Positions 18,801 through 24,800 of a stretch of DNA of 64,000 nt are shown here, piece after piece. Location: the NCBI GenBank assembly GCA_963576735.1, contig OY755184.1, positions 1 to 64,000 on the forward strand, in the 5' to 3' direction. The notes below the pieces were generated by a model, which was not told the origin of the DNA, ran no database searches, and saw nothing but the letters and a program-made list of their open reading frames with translations. A program made the translations under genes and the position numbers. The stretch is from Bedellia somnulentella (taxonomy: Eukaryota; Arthropoda; Insecta; Lepidoptera; Bedelliidae). Numbering within the stretch: position 1 is the stretch's first letter; each line of letters starts with the position of its first letter.

Positions 18801-21800
18801 TTGGAAGTTGATTGGGGGAAAAGATAGTAATAATAAATGATTTTGGTGACAGGTCTCCAACCGCATCGCCCAAAAATCACCTAAAAAAACCCTAGAACTT
18901 TAGTCGCCTCTCACGTACACCCACGTGTACAACGACACTACACGGCAACGTGAGCGTATGTATGTATGTCGGTGGCGGCGGTACCTGCGGACTTGTCGAG
19001 GAAGTAGGCCAGCAGGCAGCGCAGCACGGCCTGGTGCGCCACCACCAGCACGTTGCCCTGCCGCTCCAGCTCCATGATGACGGGCTCCAGCCGCGCCACC
19101 AGGTCCTCGTAGCTCTCGCCGCGCGGGTACCGGTACGCGAACTTGTTGGCGTCGCGCGCCGCGAAGTCCGCCGGGAACGCCGCCTGGATCTCCGCGTACG
19201 TCATCTCCTCGCAGATACCCTGCCAACGATACACCGCGTAACACGCATTGCTTACTTTTAAATCGCGGCTCGGTAACATCTAAGACCGTATTCAAACAAA
19301 CATTTTGAAAAAAAATTAAAATTATAATAAGATTTAAACATTTGACAATTAATTTTAAATTGGCATAATTTCATATTCCTCAATTATTGTTTTATTTGTT
19401 TAGACTAAGTTCCAGGTCTACGTAGCGATTACTTTTTTTTAAATATCCTGATAGTTATGTTTACTGTTGAAGATTCTACATACATATACTCATGGATATC
19501 AATCTTTAGAAGGAGTAGCCAGAGCTAAAGAAGTAGAAATTCCTCAGCAACTTTTAGAAAGTTAAGTGGGGAAAAAGATTAAACAAAGGTTGTTGGTGTT
19601 GGGTCTCCAAACGCACCGTCCAGAAATCCTTTAAGAAGCCCCAATAGTGTTCTAAATTTCTATTACATTTGATTTACATTTAACATAAACACAGAGAGGA
19701 ACACATCGATACTTTATATTAATAGAATTCTACTCTAATTGAATTAGAGAGTAATTCTAATTGTTATAATGGGCTATTTGACAGGTTTTTAAAATCCATT
19801 TTATATGATGTAGAACCTAGTAGAAGTTGTTTTTTTTTTTGTATTTTAATCTGGTACATATTTGCTGATAAATATCAAATTAAAAAAATCAATATTTAAA
19901 TAGCGCGTCAAAACTTTTTTGACAATATGCCGCTGCAAACAGGTCAGTGACGTCACTTGTCTGTATTTGGTCTGTGGCAACAAACGAGCCACGAGGTTTC
20001 TTTAAGGACATGTGACGTTATCATAAACTCGACCAATTAAGAACGTTTTGTGTCACGTGATAAACGTTTAAAAATTTGTATGTTTCTTTATGGATTTTTA
20101 AATAAATCAATAATTATTTTCAACTTACGTTAATAAATAAACATAACATAACATAAACGTTCACGCCGAATATCCCCGAAGGGGTTGGCAGAGGTACTAA
20201 TACTTCTGAATATCACGTGACTTAGTCACCTGAAGCGCAAGCACGAGCGTTATTTTATCGACACGATAACGGTTAGAACGAGATGGCAGTATACGATACC
20301 AAGTAAGTGCGTATGAGATGGCTGCTTTATCCCACGCGATAACTAGTTTAAACACGGCTCGTGCTTGCCCTTCAGGTGTTCAGAGTACCCACGTTTTGCA
20401 TGGACAGTGTACTCACGTGATAGGGGGCAGGCCTATCGCCGTTTTGTACGAATACACTGTCACATGACTAAGTACAACTCAGCCATGTGGGTTTTTTCAC
20501 GATGTTTTCGCTCACCGTTAACAAACATGATAAATTAACCACACATATGACTTTAGAAAAGACAAATTGGTGTAGGCCCGACCCGGGATTTTTACACGTT
20601 AACCGGTGTTCTACCCATTGAGCTATCACGTCGTTAATAATTAATAACCATTTTTAAACGCATAATTTATACTGATGACAGCAATTGACACTTTATTTCT
20701 CGCAGTGTCAAATTGCCTATTGGTAAATTTATTAATTTTAATAATTACAAATGTTATAAATTATTGGGTAGTATAGTTATGTTAAGTCTTGTATAAATTA
20801 AAAATTGTTAAATTAATTGAATGAAAACTTTTAATATTTAAGATAAATTTGTTAGTATTATATTTTTTAAAATTACAAAGGTTTTGTTTTTTAATTAAGA
20901 TTAATTGCCATCTTGTCTATTATAGCGTCTTTTTTATATTTCTGTTATTGTTACATAGATTTTTGCTATTGTTACATAGATTTAGCTACAGATGCAATTT
21001 AAATATTATTATATATGTACGGGCCAATAGCCGTACATTTTGCTATGTTAACAATTTTACCTTAGTGACCTAAATTAAGTCAGTTCTTGTCCGTCATCAA
21101 CCGCGCGCGACACGTACTCATCCTCATATCATTATAGAATGGTTATCAGATTAAATAAATCAAATTATCATAATTATATATTTTTTTTATCATTTCTATC
21201 ATTTTATCAAATTGGTTTGTGGACCTGGCCCTCACAACATTTTTTTTTTTAAATGTTTATATTCCAATTCAAGTTGAGTTTGATTCGTAGAAACTAAGAG
21301 GTGTAAATATTGTAACCTGAGATACGGGCGACGAGTCTAGTTTGGATGCAGTCGACGCCAAATACTGATATTGTTTGTATAAATAAATAAAACATAATGC
21401 AGTGTAAGCACTCACGGCGTCGATCTCGTTGAGCGCCTTCCAGCGCTCCTGCGGCGCGGGCACGTCGGCCACGGTCTGCACGGCGCGGCGCTGCCACGAG
21501 CTCCACACGGTATATGTATGTATGTATGTATGTATGGACTCACGGCGTCGATCTCGTTGAGCGCCTTCCAGCGCTCCTGCGGCGCGGGCACGTCGGCCAC
21601 GGTCTGCACGGCGCGGCGCTGCCACGAGCTCCACACGGTATATGTATGTATGTATGTATGTATGGACTCACGGCGTCGATCTCGTTGAGCGCCTTCCAGC
21701 GCTCCTGCGGCGCGGGCACGTCGGCCACGGTCTGCACGGCGCGGCGCTGCCACGAGCTCCACACGGTATATGTATGTATGTATGTATGTATGGACTCACG

Positions 21801-24800
21801 GCGTCGATCTCGTTGAGCGCCTTCCAGCGCTCCTGCGGCGCGGGCACGTCGGCCACGGTCTGCACGGCGCGGCGCTGCCACGAGCTCCACACGGTATATG
21901 TATGTATGTATGTATGTATGGACTCACGGCGTCGATCTCGTTGAGCGCCTTCCAGCGCTCCTGCGGCGCGGGCACGTCGGCCACGGTCTGCACGGCGCGG
22001 CGCTGCCACGAGCTCCACACGGTATATGTATGTATGTATGTATGTATGGACTCACGGCGTCGATCTCGTTGAGCGCCTTCCAGCGCTCCTGCGGCGCGGG
22101 CACGTCGGCCACGGTCTGCACGGCGCGGCGCTGCCACGAGCTCCACACGGTATATGTATGTATGTATGTATGTATGGACTCACGGCGTCGATCTCGTTGA
22201 GCGCCTTCCAGCGCTCCTGCGGCGCGGGCACGTCGGCCACGGTCTGCACGGCGCGGCGCTGCCACGAGCTCCACACGGTATATGTATGTATGTATGTATG
22301 TATGGACTCACGGCGTCGATCTCGTTGAGCGCCTTCCAGCGCTCCTGCGGCGCGGGCACGTCGGCCACGGTCTGCACGGCGCGGCGCTGCCACGAGCTCC
22401 ACACGGTATATGTATGTATGTATGTATGTATGGACTCACGGCGTCGATCTCGTTGAGCGCCTTCCAGCGCTCCTGCGGCGCGGGCACGTCGGCCACGGTC
22501 TGCACGGCGCGGCGCTGCCACGAGCTCCACACGGTATATGTATGTATGTATGTATGTATGGACTCACGGCGTCGATCTCGTTGAGCGCCTTCCAGCGCTC
22601 CTGCGGCGCGGGCACGTCGGCCACGGTCTGCACGGCGCGGCGCTGCCACGAGCTCCACACGGTATATGTATGTATGTATGTATGTATGGACTCACGGCGT
22701 CGATCTCGTTGAGCGCCTTCCAGCGCTCCTGCGGCGCGGGCACGTCGGCCACGGTCTGCACGGCGCGGCGCTGCCACGAGCTCCACACGGTATATGTATG
22801 TATGTATGTATGTATGGACTCACGGCGTCGATCTCGTTGAGCGCCTTCCAGCGCTCCTGCGGCGCGGGCACGTCGGCCACGGTCTGCACGGCGCGGCGCT
22901 GCCACGAGCTCCACACGGTATATGTATGTATGTATGTATGTATGGACTCACGGCGTCGATCTCGTTGAGCGCCTTCCAGCGCTCCTGCGGCGCGGGCACG
23001 TCGGCCACGGTCTGCACGGCGCGGCGCTGCCACGAGCTCCACACGCGCAGCCCGGCGATGCGCTGCGCCGCCACGAACCGCGCCAGCGCCGCCGCGTACT
23101 GTCTGCCGCGCGGGCTGAGCGAGCTGTCGCCGCCGATGCGCCCCACCACGTTGTGCTCGCTCTCGCCGTGCTGGGGAGGAGATACATTTAAACAAGTTGC
23201 AAACGCCCCTGTACTACACCTGACAGATCTGTTAAACTGGGTACCCCGCTTTACCACCAAATAAAAGTTATGAAAAATGTCAGTAAAAAATTAAAACTAA
23301 TATAAGTACAGTTAAACATGATAGTCCAGTGGGTAAGAACACCCGCCCGAAAAACAGAAGGGCGTGAGTTCCAATCCTGGGACGGGCCTACACCAATTTG
23401 TCTTTTCTAAAGTCATATGTGTGGTTAATTTATCATGGTTGCTAACGGTGAGGGAAAACATCGTGAGGAAACCCACATGGCTGAGTTGTACTTAGTCATG
23501 TGACAGTGTATTCGTACAAAACGGCAATAGGCCTGCCCCCTATCACGTGAGTACACTGTCTAAGCAAAACGTGGGTATCTTGTATTGCATTATCGTAGAG
23601 TAACTATTATAACATTAAGTTTTAGTATGTGAAACAGATTACAAACGAAATGTGACTATAACTTATTACGCAATGTGACTTTAACTTATTGGGAAATAGT
23701 GTGAAAATAATAATTTCCTCCTTAATCCAATATTTTGACAAAAATTAAATACAAAAACATTAATACAGGTGTTAAAGCGATTTGGATACGCAACTTGGAT
23801 CACTTGCTTTAACGGGCTCAAAACATAAGCAATCCAGAGGCGCGTCACTTCACAGTAGAGACAAACAATTGTCATTTTTTATATTGTATAAAAGGCGGAG
23901 CAAAACCCATTTCAAACCCCTTTTTTCATCTCATCAAAACCGATAGAAGACACAGAAGACGGGAAGACATACATTTAATATTGTACAATTAAAGTCTATA
24001 TAGCATAAACCGATTGTAAAAGTGCAGTAAACCCTAGTCGCAACGTTTCTGGTTTTTATTTCATCTGCAACCATCACAACTTCGACTTGAGACGCCACCA
24101 CGAGGCTGATCGAGTCCGTGAGCGAGCAGCAGGCGCACAACAGCCTGCTATCGTTCACACAGTATAATAGAATCGTTTTTGAAAAATCATTTCTGTAGAA
24201 TATCAGCATAGAATAGCACTACTCCATTTATTTCTGTAAGTGTAGCTGTGTAGCATCAGCTTAGAATAGCACTGCCCCATTTCTCCCGATGGGTGTACGT
24301 AAGAGGCGACAAACGGTTTGGGGCTTTTAAGGGATTGTTGGGCGATGCGGTTGGAAACCCATCACCAACAACCTTTATTCCACCATCTTTTCCCCACGCA
24401 ACTTCCAAAAGTGGCTGAAGAATTTCTGATTCCTGAGTTCTGGCTACCCCGTCAAGGGATTCATAGCCGTAAGTATATGTGTAAAATAATGAGAACAAGT
24501 TGCAAGGACCCCTGTACTAGACCTGAGAGATCTTTTGAAGAGGATGTCCAACAAGCAATAAAAGTTTTGAAAAAAATAAAATATTTTCCTAAAATTAATA
24601 TAGATACAGGATTTTACTTAAACATACTAAATCTTATTCTAAAGCGAAACTATGATCACAGATTATGTTCTTTGGATGTCTGTGTGAGGGAGGATGTGTA
24701 AATGTTCGAAAGAGAGGCCGTGTGTTTTGTGTAAGTCTTTTGGTATGTGAAACAGATTTAAACGAAATGTGAGTATAACTTATTACAAAATAGTGCAACA

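What the first reader, a model, noticed from the sequence alone, without database searches (positions are those of the whole stretch)
21411..23045. Thirteen tandem copies of an exon tail plus its splice donor inside PFKFB
Seen: a 128-bp unit, repeated 13 times at exact period, carries 94 nt of coding sequence (31 codons including the catalytic Glu), GTGAGT and a (CATA)n spacer. Only one copy belongs to the full exon. The protein needs exactly one copy, since His-to-Glu and His-to-His spacing already match the mammalian enzyme. Inference: twelve decoy 5' splice sites and exon fragments are transcribed in the intron. Use of a downstream donor adds 128 nt per unit, shifts frame and meets a stop in the next CCGTGAGT. 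Copy number could therefore tune the yield of full-length enzyme. Near-perfect identity suggests recent expansion or gene conversion.
Basis: partly seen in the sequence, partly recalled or inferred. Interest (0 to 1): 0.88.

Follow-up and report, generated by a model that had tools for sequence, protein, structure and literature searches.

The report
Tandem array duplicating a splice donor
In a moth or butterfly gene for a sugar-metabolism enzyme, the end of one exon together with its splice signal appears thirteen times in a row without a difference, apparently a young local expansion seeded by a scrap of a mobile element, leaving one usable splice site and twelve identical decoys.

Summary
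The array is real in the given sequence. On the minus strand, 93 nt of coding sequence plus GTGAGT occur 13 times at exact 128-nt spacing (23044..21410); the 12 full units are identical. The gene is an otherwise intact-looking lepidopteran PFKFB. Only the first donor (22951) joins the next exon (19219) in frame; all 12 others give a premature stop. New here: the CATA spacer is missing after copy 13, so the array reads tail-spacer-tail, and the spacer matches the end of a dispersed ~250-bp retroposon-like element. The same gene holds a second perfect tandem duplication (2 x 1756 bp) whose junction carries an inverted copy of its own breakpoint. I read the array as a young minisatellite seeded by a duplication with a retroposon-tail junction and then amplified; donor 1 probably makes the enzyme and the decoys are passive, possibly leaky. 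Regulation by copy number is untested. Assembly or library error cannot be excluded: no reads were available and the genome search did not complete in 8 tries. New variant of a known kind.

The parts
22952..23170 (-). PFKFB exon (HGESEHN...LNEIDA), first phosphatase exon, 219 nt; acceptor CCCCAG just upstream
21410..23044 (-). 128-nt tandem array: 13 copies of exon tail + GTGAGT, 12 spacers
22952..23044 (-). copy 1 of the unit's coding part (31 codons), the only copy attached to the full exon
22946..22951 (-). donor 1 (GCC|GTGAGT), the only donor that keeps the reading frame to 19219
22917..22945 (-). spacer 1, CCATACATACATACATACATACATATACC: matches the (CATA)nCATATAC end of a dispersed element; repeated identically 12 times
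21416..21508 (-). copy 13 of the coding part, followed by a GTGAGT that continues into a different intron sequence (GCTTACACTGC) with no spacer
21410..21415 (-). donor 13, last decoy donor
18985..19219 (-). next PFKFB exon (GICEEMTY...LDKSA), acceptor TTGGCAG
18308..18435 (-). following PFKFB exon ([12 protein letters not shown]...RPKPQ); its donor is followed at +9 by another end of the same element
25281..25541 (-). upstream PFKFB exon, end of the kinase part (EVKVSSPDY...IYLTR)
20386..20590 (.). dispersed repeat (SINE-like by eye), inverted partner of 23373-23577 (205 nt, 95% complementary), on the downstream side of the array
23373..23577 (.). dispersed repeat (SINE-like by eye), inverted partner of 20386-20590, on the upstream side of the exon
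27937..31480 (.). second perfect tandem duplication in the same gene: 27937-29692 = 29725-31480 (1756 nt, 0 mismatches); junction 29693-29724 is an inverted copy of the breakpoint region

Best explanation
It is a young minisatellite that spans an exon-intron boundary. Step 1 (inferred): the last 93-100 nt of the exon with its donor were duplicated, with about 28 nt of a retroposon tail left at the junction, either by a nearly fully 5'-truncated insertion with an unusually long target-site duplication or by a replication template switch that copied an element tail. Step 2 (inferred): the pair was amplified to 13 copies by unequal exchange or slippage, recently enough that no difference has arisen. 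Step 3 (inferred): the spliceosome mostly uses donor 1, because it closes a 219-nt exon and is transcribed first, and removes the other 12 copies with the intron. Any use of donors 2-13 gives an mRNA with a premature stop, so the decoys are neutral to mildly costly and copy number has at most a leak effect. Shown: the array, its identity, the reading-frame consequences, and the match of the spacer to an element end. Not shown: which donor is used, copy number in other individuals, and any regulatory role.
For: 12 of 12 full units identical, 13 of 13 donors identical. Only donor 1 gives the EIDA|GICEEM junction, which all 25 homologues aligned (of 120 listed) share. Gene looks intact: exons in order from 56440 to 18302 with four lepidopteran homologues (hits starting at 21400-22900 were left out of that print), Pfam 6PF2K and His_Phos_1 in the joined model. 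Spacer origin: 10 of 11 CATA tracts of three or more units outside the array are followed by the element core, and 13 of 14 CATACATATAC strings by TCACGG or nearly. Element looks like a retroposon: of 34 merged matches, 27 include the CATA end and 15 of these lack the other end, against 5 that lack the CATA end, leaving aside two rows of the 1756-bp duplication (my tally; divergence can mimic truncation, and 4 of the 12 full matches are the query copies); 7 of the 25 copies tested (of those 34) have flanking direct repeats above the 95% level of 40 shuffles, where about 1 is expected, best 14 of 15 bases. A template-switch-like duplication exists in the same gene. In human and mouse, transcripts using exon extensions fall off quickly with extension length (PMC2423196, passages).
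Against: No RNA, no reads, no second individual. The 99-100 nt 'target duplication' is about seven times longer than the 10-15 nt seen at other copies of the element, which speaks against a simple insertion. The CATA tract has the same length in all 12 units, which is surprising unless the array is very young, homogenised, or made in the library or assembly. Donor choice is open: passages of PMC5585400 cite SRSF1 as favouring the intron-proximal donor (here donor 13) and hnRNP A1 the intron-distal one (here donor 1). With the widest folding window, donors 2-12 are predicted somewhat more accessible than donor 1 (0.014 against 0.0008).
Confidence: 0.58

Rival explanations
1. Assembly or library artefact: the true allele has one or a few copies, and the number 13 was produced by polymerase slippage, rolling amplification or an assembler loop.
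For: All full units including the microsatellite are identical; a second stretch of the same gene is also a perfect tandem duplication, with an inverted junction of a kind that amplification chimeras can also make (the comparison is recalled).
Against: The tail-spacer-tail junction cannot come from a single-copy template without a chimeric join; the asymmetric last copy joins a native-looking intron; the array is 1.6 kb, which ordinary long reads span (general knowledge). The sequencing technology behind the window is unknown to me.
Confidence: 0.22
2. Copy number regulates the enzyme: decoy donors divert a fraction of transcripts to premature stops. mRNAs that escape decay would encode the whole kinase but a phosphatase without its second half, raising the kinase/phosphatase ratio.
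For: 12 of 12 decoys give a stop; the stop lies after the kinase domain (6PF2K at 6-219, His_Phos_1 at 223-402 of the 421-aa model); all donors have the same sequence.
Against: No sign of maintenance by selection: the units show no differences, so no history can be read. None of the 120 listed homologues carries the tail twice in its protein, but an array hidden in an intron would not show there, so this says little. Predicted accessibility does not order the donors consistently.
Confidence: 0.07
3. Decoy units act as small cassette exons: three CAG triplets in each unit could serve as in-frame acceptors, giving 75-, 60- or 33-nt exons that insert 25, 20 or 11 codons.
For: All three are in phase 0 and end at a decoy donor; pyrimidine content upstream is 0.47-0.59, against 0.47-0.76 in the six stretches I took for real acceptors, of which the last was misplaced by a few bases.
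Against: No polypyrimidine tract in the CATA spacer; the insertion would fall beside the catalytic Glu (position from general knowledge of the family); no transcript evidence.
Confidence: 0.03
4. A narrower form of the best explanation: the same young array, but seeded only by replication template switching (as in the 1756-bp duplication) with the element tail copied as filler, without any retrotransposition step.
For: The junction of the 1756-bp duplication holds a 31-nt inverted templated insert; the 99-100 nt duplicated tail is far longer than this element's usual flanking repeats.
Against: The spacer is bounded by an element end, as a tail-only insertion would be.
Confidence: 0.1

Closest known systems
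Minisatellites/VNTRs overlapping exons or introns
   Same: Head-to-tail near-identical units; copy number expected to vary (not tested here)
   Different: The unit straddles an exon-intron boundary and carries the splice donor, so every copy is an equal decoy; the four searches aimed at this (1, 4, 3 and 8 papers listed) showed no such case in their listings
Intron gain by tandem duplication (Rogers model; potato RdRp case, PMC4974935, abstract and results section read)
   Same: Tandem duplication crossing an intron-exon boundary and copying splice signals; that paper also checked against assembly error
   Different: There the 3' splice site side was duplicated and a new intron arose; here the 5' splice site side is duplicated 12 extra times and no clear new acceptor is supplied
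RTE-derived microsatellite families of Lepidoptera (PMC2887409, passages and discussion read)
   Same: Truncated retroposons with a simple-repeat 3' end and short target duplications seed microsatellites in lepidopteran genomes
   Different: Here only the tail end is left and it sits between 99-100 nt duplicated exon tails; I did not show that the element is an RTE
Competing alternative 5' splice sites (e.g. DOK7 intron 4, PMC5585400, passages read)
   Same: More than one donor for one acceptor, with a functional and a frameshifted mRNA
   Different: Two unequal donors 11 nt apart there; thirteen identical donors 128 nt apart here

Membership tests
PFKFB (6-phosphofructo-2-kinase/fructose-2,6-bisphosphatase) | 6PF2K kinase domain plus His_Phos_1 phosphatase domain | tested here: met
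   PF01591 E 3.6e-86, PF00300 E 2e-41 in the 421-aa joined model
PFKFB (6-phosphofructo-2-kinase/fructose-2,6-bisphosphatase) | phosphatase core collinear with a solved bisphosphatase using one copy of the unit | tested here: met
   ungapped 1-150 alignment to 1fbt_A
Minisatellite / VNTR | head-to-tail near-identical units longer than a microsatellite's | tested here: met
Minisatellite / VNTR | copy number varies between individuals | not testable with these tools
   no reads or second individual; genome search unanswered
Intron gain by tandem duplication | duplication supplies both a donor and an acceptor of a new, spliced intron | tested here: inconclusive
   donors present; only weak CAG triplets as acceptors; no RNA
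Regulated (unproductive) alternative 5' splice sites | alternative donors give premature stops | tested here: met
   12 of 12
Regulated (unproductive) alternative 5' splice sites | alternative junctions seen in RNA and responding to a signal | not testable with these tools
   no RNA data
Non-LTR retroposon (the dispersed CATA element) | simple-repeat end, truncation at the other end, flanking target duplications | tested here: met
   (direct repeats above the shuffle level in 7 of 25 copies tested; one of the seven, at 58949, does not lie flush with the element ends)
Non-LTR retroposon tail insertion at this donor | target duplication of the family's usual length | tested here: not met
   99-100 nt here against 10-15 nt elsewhere

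The most novel reading that the evidence does not exclude
A heritable, fast-mutating repeat that sets the kinase/phosphatase balance of PFKFB: each added unit adds an identical decoy donor, and use of any decoy makes an mRNA whose open frame covers the kinase but stops inside the phosphatase, so copy number would tune fructose-2,6-bisphosphate and hence glycolytic flux.
Probability: 0.05. Interest if true: 0.82.

Novelty: new variant of a known kind. Interest (0 to 1): 0.42.

Why it matters
If the array is confirmed in DNA, it is a natural experiment in 5' splice site choice: thirteen donors with identical sequence, at even spacing, competing for one acceptor. Which donor wins in RNA would separate 'first transcribed / exon definition' from 'closest to the intron' rules without engineering. 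It also suggests a route by which a scrap of a retroposon can turn an exon edge into a minisatellite.

Tried and rejected
RNA hairpin as the sorter of donors: each of the first 12 donors can pair with the start of the next copy (15 bp, -17.6 kcal/mol; 9 of 1000 shuffles of the part after the donor as good), but the 200-nt stretch as a whole is not unusually stable (z -0.77). Predicted accessibility of the 9-nt donor is at most 0.014 for donors 1, 2-12, 13 and for a collapsed single-copy version, and the order changes with the window size; at the widest window donors 2-12 come out above donor 1. Rejected as an explanation.

Special evolution of the repeated stretch: GC3 is 1.00 in the unit but 0.83-1.00 in the other exon stretches measured, and positions where the window differs from all 10 lepidopteran homologues used are 5 of 31 in the unit against 7 of 42 just upstream in the same exon. 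No sign of array-driven change.

Structured RNA or tRNA genes in the window: none found by Rfam at gathering thresholds or by ARAGORN. Tandem copies in homologous proteins: none of the 120 listed (117 with one LNEID motif, 3 with none); a weak test, since an intronic array would not show in a protein. Microhomology with the element: the element end in sense reads GCCGTGAGTATATG and shares GCCGTGAGT with the exon end, but the spacer lies in the opposite orientation, so no simple join through it; left unexplained.

Literature: nine searches were answered. Four of them were aimed at exon-edge arrays or duplications, and their listings showed no array of this kind; the library is open-access only and the terms were narrow. 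The Hodson 2012 work on surplus U1 snRNPs could not be read (searches failed; the first was a DOI that I guessed) and is known to me only as a reference entry.
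Full report
What is there. The best protein matches of the gene are moths and butterflies (Leguminivora, Cydia, Papilio, Danaus, 88-90% identity to my joined model), so I take the window as lepidopteran; none of the 120 listed proteins (of 5711 matches) is closer than 90%, so I do not name the species. The gene on the minus strand is PFKFB. 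tblastn with four lepidopteran homologues finds its exons in order from 56440 (first exon, with an alternative one at 39174) to 18302, and the joined translation has the kinase and phosphatase domains. The last coding exon (near 15.6-15.9 kb) was recognised by eye only. The exon 23170-22952 carries HGESEHN...LNEIDA and joins the exon at 19219 in phase 0, giving EIDA|GICEEM as in the 25 homologues aligned.

The array. From 23044 down to 21410 the last 93 coding nt of that exon, with GTGAGT, occur 13 times at exact 128-nt steps. Units 1 to 12 show no difference at any of 128 positions; copy 13 is identical through GTGAGT and then departs. TRF scores the array 3272, against at most 126 for the other 16 rows of the window. 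It is far beyond chance. The upstream part of the exon (126 nt) is single copy. The finding is therefore confirmed, with the small corrections given in the observation check.

Because copy 13 is not followed by the spacer, the array reads tail-spacer-tail ... tail, not (tail-spacer) repeated to the end. The most economical single-copy ancestor is an exon ending GACGCC followed by GTGAGTGCTTACACTGC (inference). The spacer is then an insert at the duplication junction. Its sequence, six CATA units ending CATATAC, matches the end of a dispersed element. A scan for the element core with up to 5 mismatches in 19 finds 24 places in 64 kb, of which a few lack a CATA tail (no chance control was run for this scan); of 14 copies aligned, the fuller ones share about 250 bp. 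Outside the array 10 of 11 CATA tracts of three or more units are followed by the element core, the exception being the tract at 18956-18967; 13 of 14 CATACATATAC strings run into TCACGG or nearly. By BLAST 34 merged matches were listed; by my tally 27 include the CATA end, of which 15 lack the opposite end, and 7 lack the CATA end, two of which are pieces of the 1756-bp duplication. Divergence can mimic truncation, and four of the 12 full matches are the query copies themselves. Of these 34, I tested 25 for flanking direct repeats: 7 exceed the 95% level of 40 shuffles, five of them with 11 to 14 matching bases; one of the seven (58949) does not lie flush with the element ends, and 18 of 25 do not exceed the level. 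This is how 5'-truncated retroposons with a simple-repeat tail look, and such families are described in Lepidoptera (PMC2887409, passages and discussion). Whether this one is an RTE end or a SINE was not settled.

How the first pair may have arisen. A tail-only insertion would explain that the spacer is bounded by an element end, but its flanking duplication would be 99-100 nt, against 10-15 nt at other copies. A replication template switch that picked up an element tail is the alternative. In favour of the latter, the same gene has a second perfect tandem duplication, 27937-29692 = 29725-31480, whose 32-nt junction is the reverse complement of the breakpoint region (31 nt matching exactly). 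I do not decide between the two.

Age. With 12 units of 128 nt and no change, a star expansion older than about 0.67 million generations has under 5% probability at 2.9e-9 per site and generation (rate recalled, not from a call; arithmetic); the equal length of all 12 CATA tracts suggests much less (inference). Homogenisation by exchange, or an artefact, would give the same picture.

What splicing would make. I joined the exon, ended at each donor, to the exon at 19219. Donor 1 is open. Donor 2 stops 16 nt into the next exon. Donors 3 to 13 stop at the CCGTGAGT of copy 2. All 12 stops come after the kinase domain and before the second catalytic His of the phosphatase (motif position from general knowledge of the family), so a stable truncated product would be a kinase without a working phosphatase; decay of the mRNA is the more likely fate (inference). 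All donors have the same -3..+6 sequence, so strength cannot choose. Exon length (219 nt) and order of transcription favour donor 1, and in human and mouse the use of exon extensions falls quickly with their length (PMC2423196, passages). Passages of PMC5585400 cite SRSF1 as favouring the intron-proximal donor, which would be donor 13, and hnRNP A1 the intron-distal one, which would be donor 1. Since PFKFB is a basic metabolic enzyme and this allele keeps an otherwise intact-looking gene, I expect donor 1 to be used mostly (inference). Predicted RNA folding does not help to choose and, at the widest window, leans slightly against donor 1. Three CAG triplets per unit could in principle act as in-frame acceptors, a minor possibility.

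Flanks. Two repeats, SINE-like by eye, lie in inverted orientation on either side, 205 nt at 95% complementarity, 2782 nt apart; they could pair in the pre-mRNA and enclose exon and array. This is noted, not tested.

Limits. No reads, RNA, second individual or whole genome were available; the genome search did not complete in 8 tries. So copy number and biological use are open, and I keep 0.22 for an artefact. Novelty: a minisatellite across a splice donor, with what looks like the tail of a retroposon as spacer, is a new variant of known kinds; the four paper searches aimed at it listed no matching case, within the limits of that library. The potato RdRp duplication across an intron-exon boundary is the nearest I found (PMC4974935, abstract and results).

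Noticed in passing
window 27937-31480: Perfect tandem duplication of 1756 bp with a 32-nt junction that is an inverted copy of the breakpoint region; it holds a THAP domain stretch (29181-29390, scanned; its identical copy at 30969-31178 not scanned) beside a P-element-type transposase frame.
   Followed up: partly
window 31923-34217 (+): Uninterrupted 764-codon stop-to-stop frame with P-element/THAP9 transposase domains (758 aa scanned) inside a PFKFB intron, on the opposite strand.
   Followed up: partly
window 22951, 18984, 18307 (-): Three of the eight PFKFB donors read by eye are followed within 17 nt by a CATA tract in the same orientation (one of them, at 18956-18967, was not recognised as an element end), although only 7 element ends lie in that orientation in the window outside the array; hand estimate about 0.02 expected. 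Post hoc, one gene only.
   Followed up: partly
window 26806-26820 (-) and element ends: The element's sense end reads GCCGTGAGTATATG; the PFKFB donor at 26817 (GCC|GTGAGTATA) and the array donor (GCC|GTGAGT) share 12 and 9 nt with it. Unexplained.
   Followed up: no
window 26587-26779 and 28008-28200: Intron sequence next to a kinase exon is 95.9% identical to a stretch 1.4 kb away that adjoins an element end, and again at 29796-29988.
   Followed up: no
window 15604-15892 (-): Putative last coding exon ([17 protein letters not shown]...) with in-frame short tandem repeats, a further repeat array in the same gene.
   Followed up: no
window 20386-20590 and 23373-23577: Inverted pair of dispersed repeats enclosing the exon and the array; could favour circular RNA or exon skipping.
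   Followed up: no
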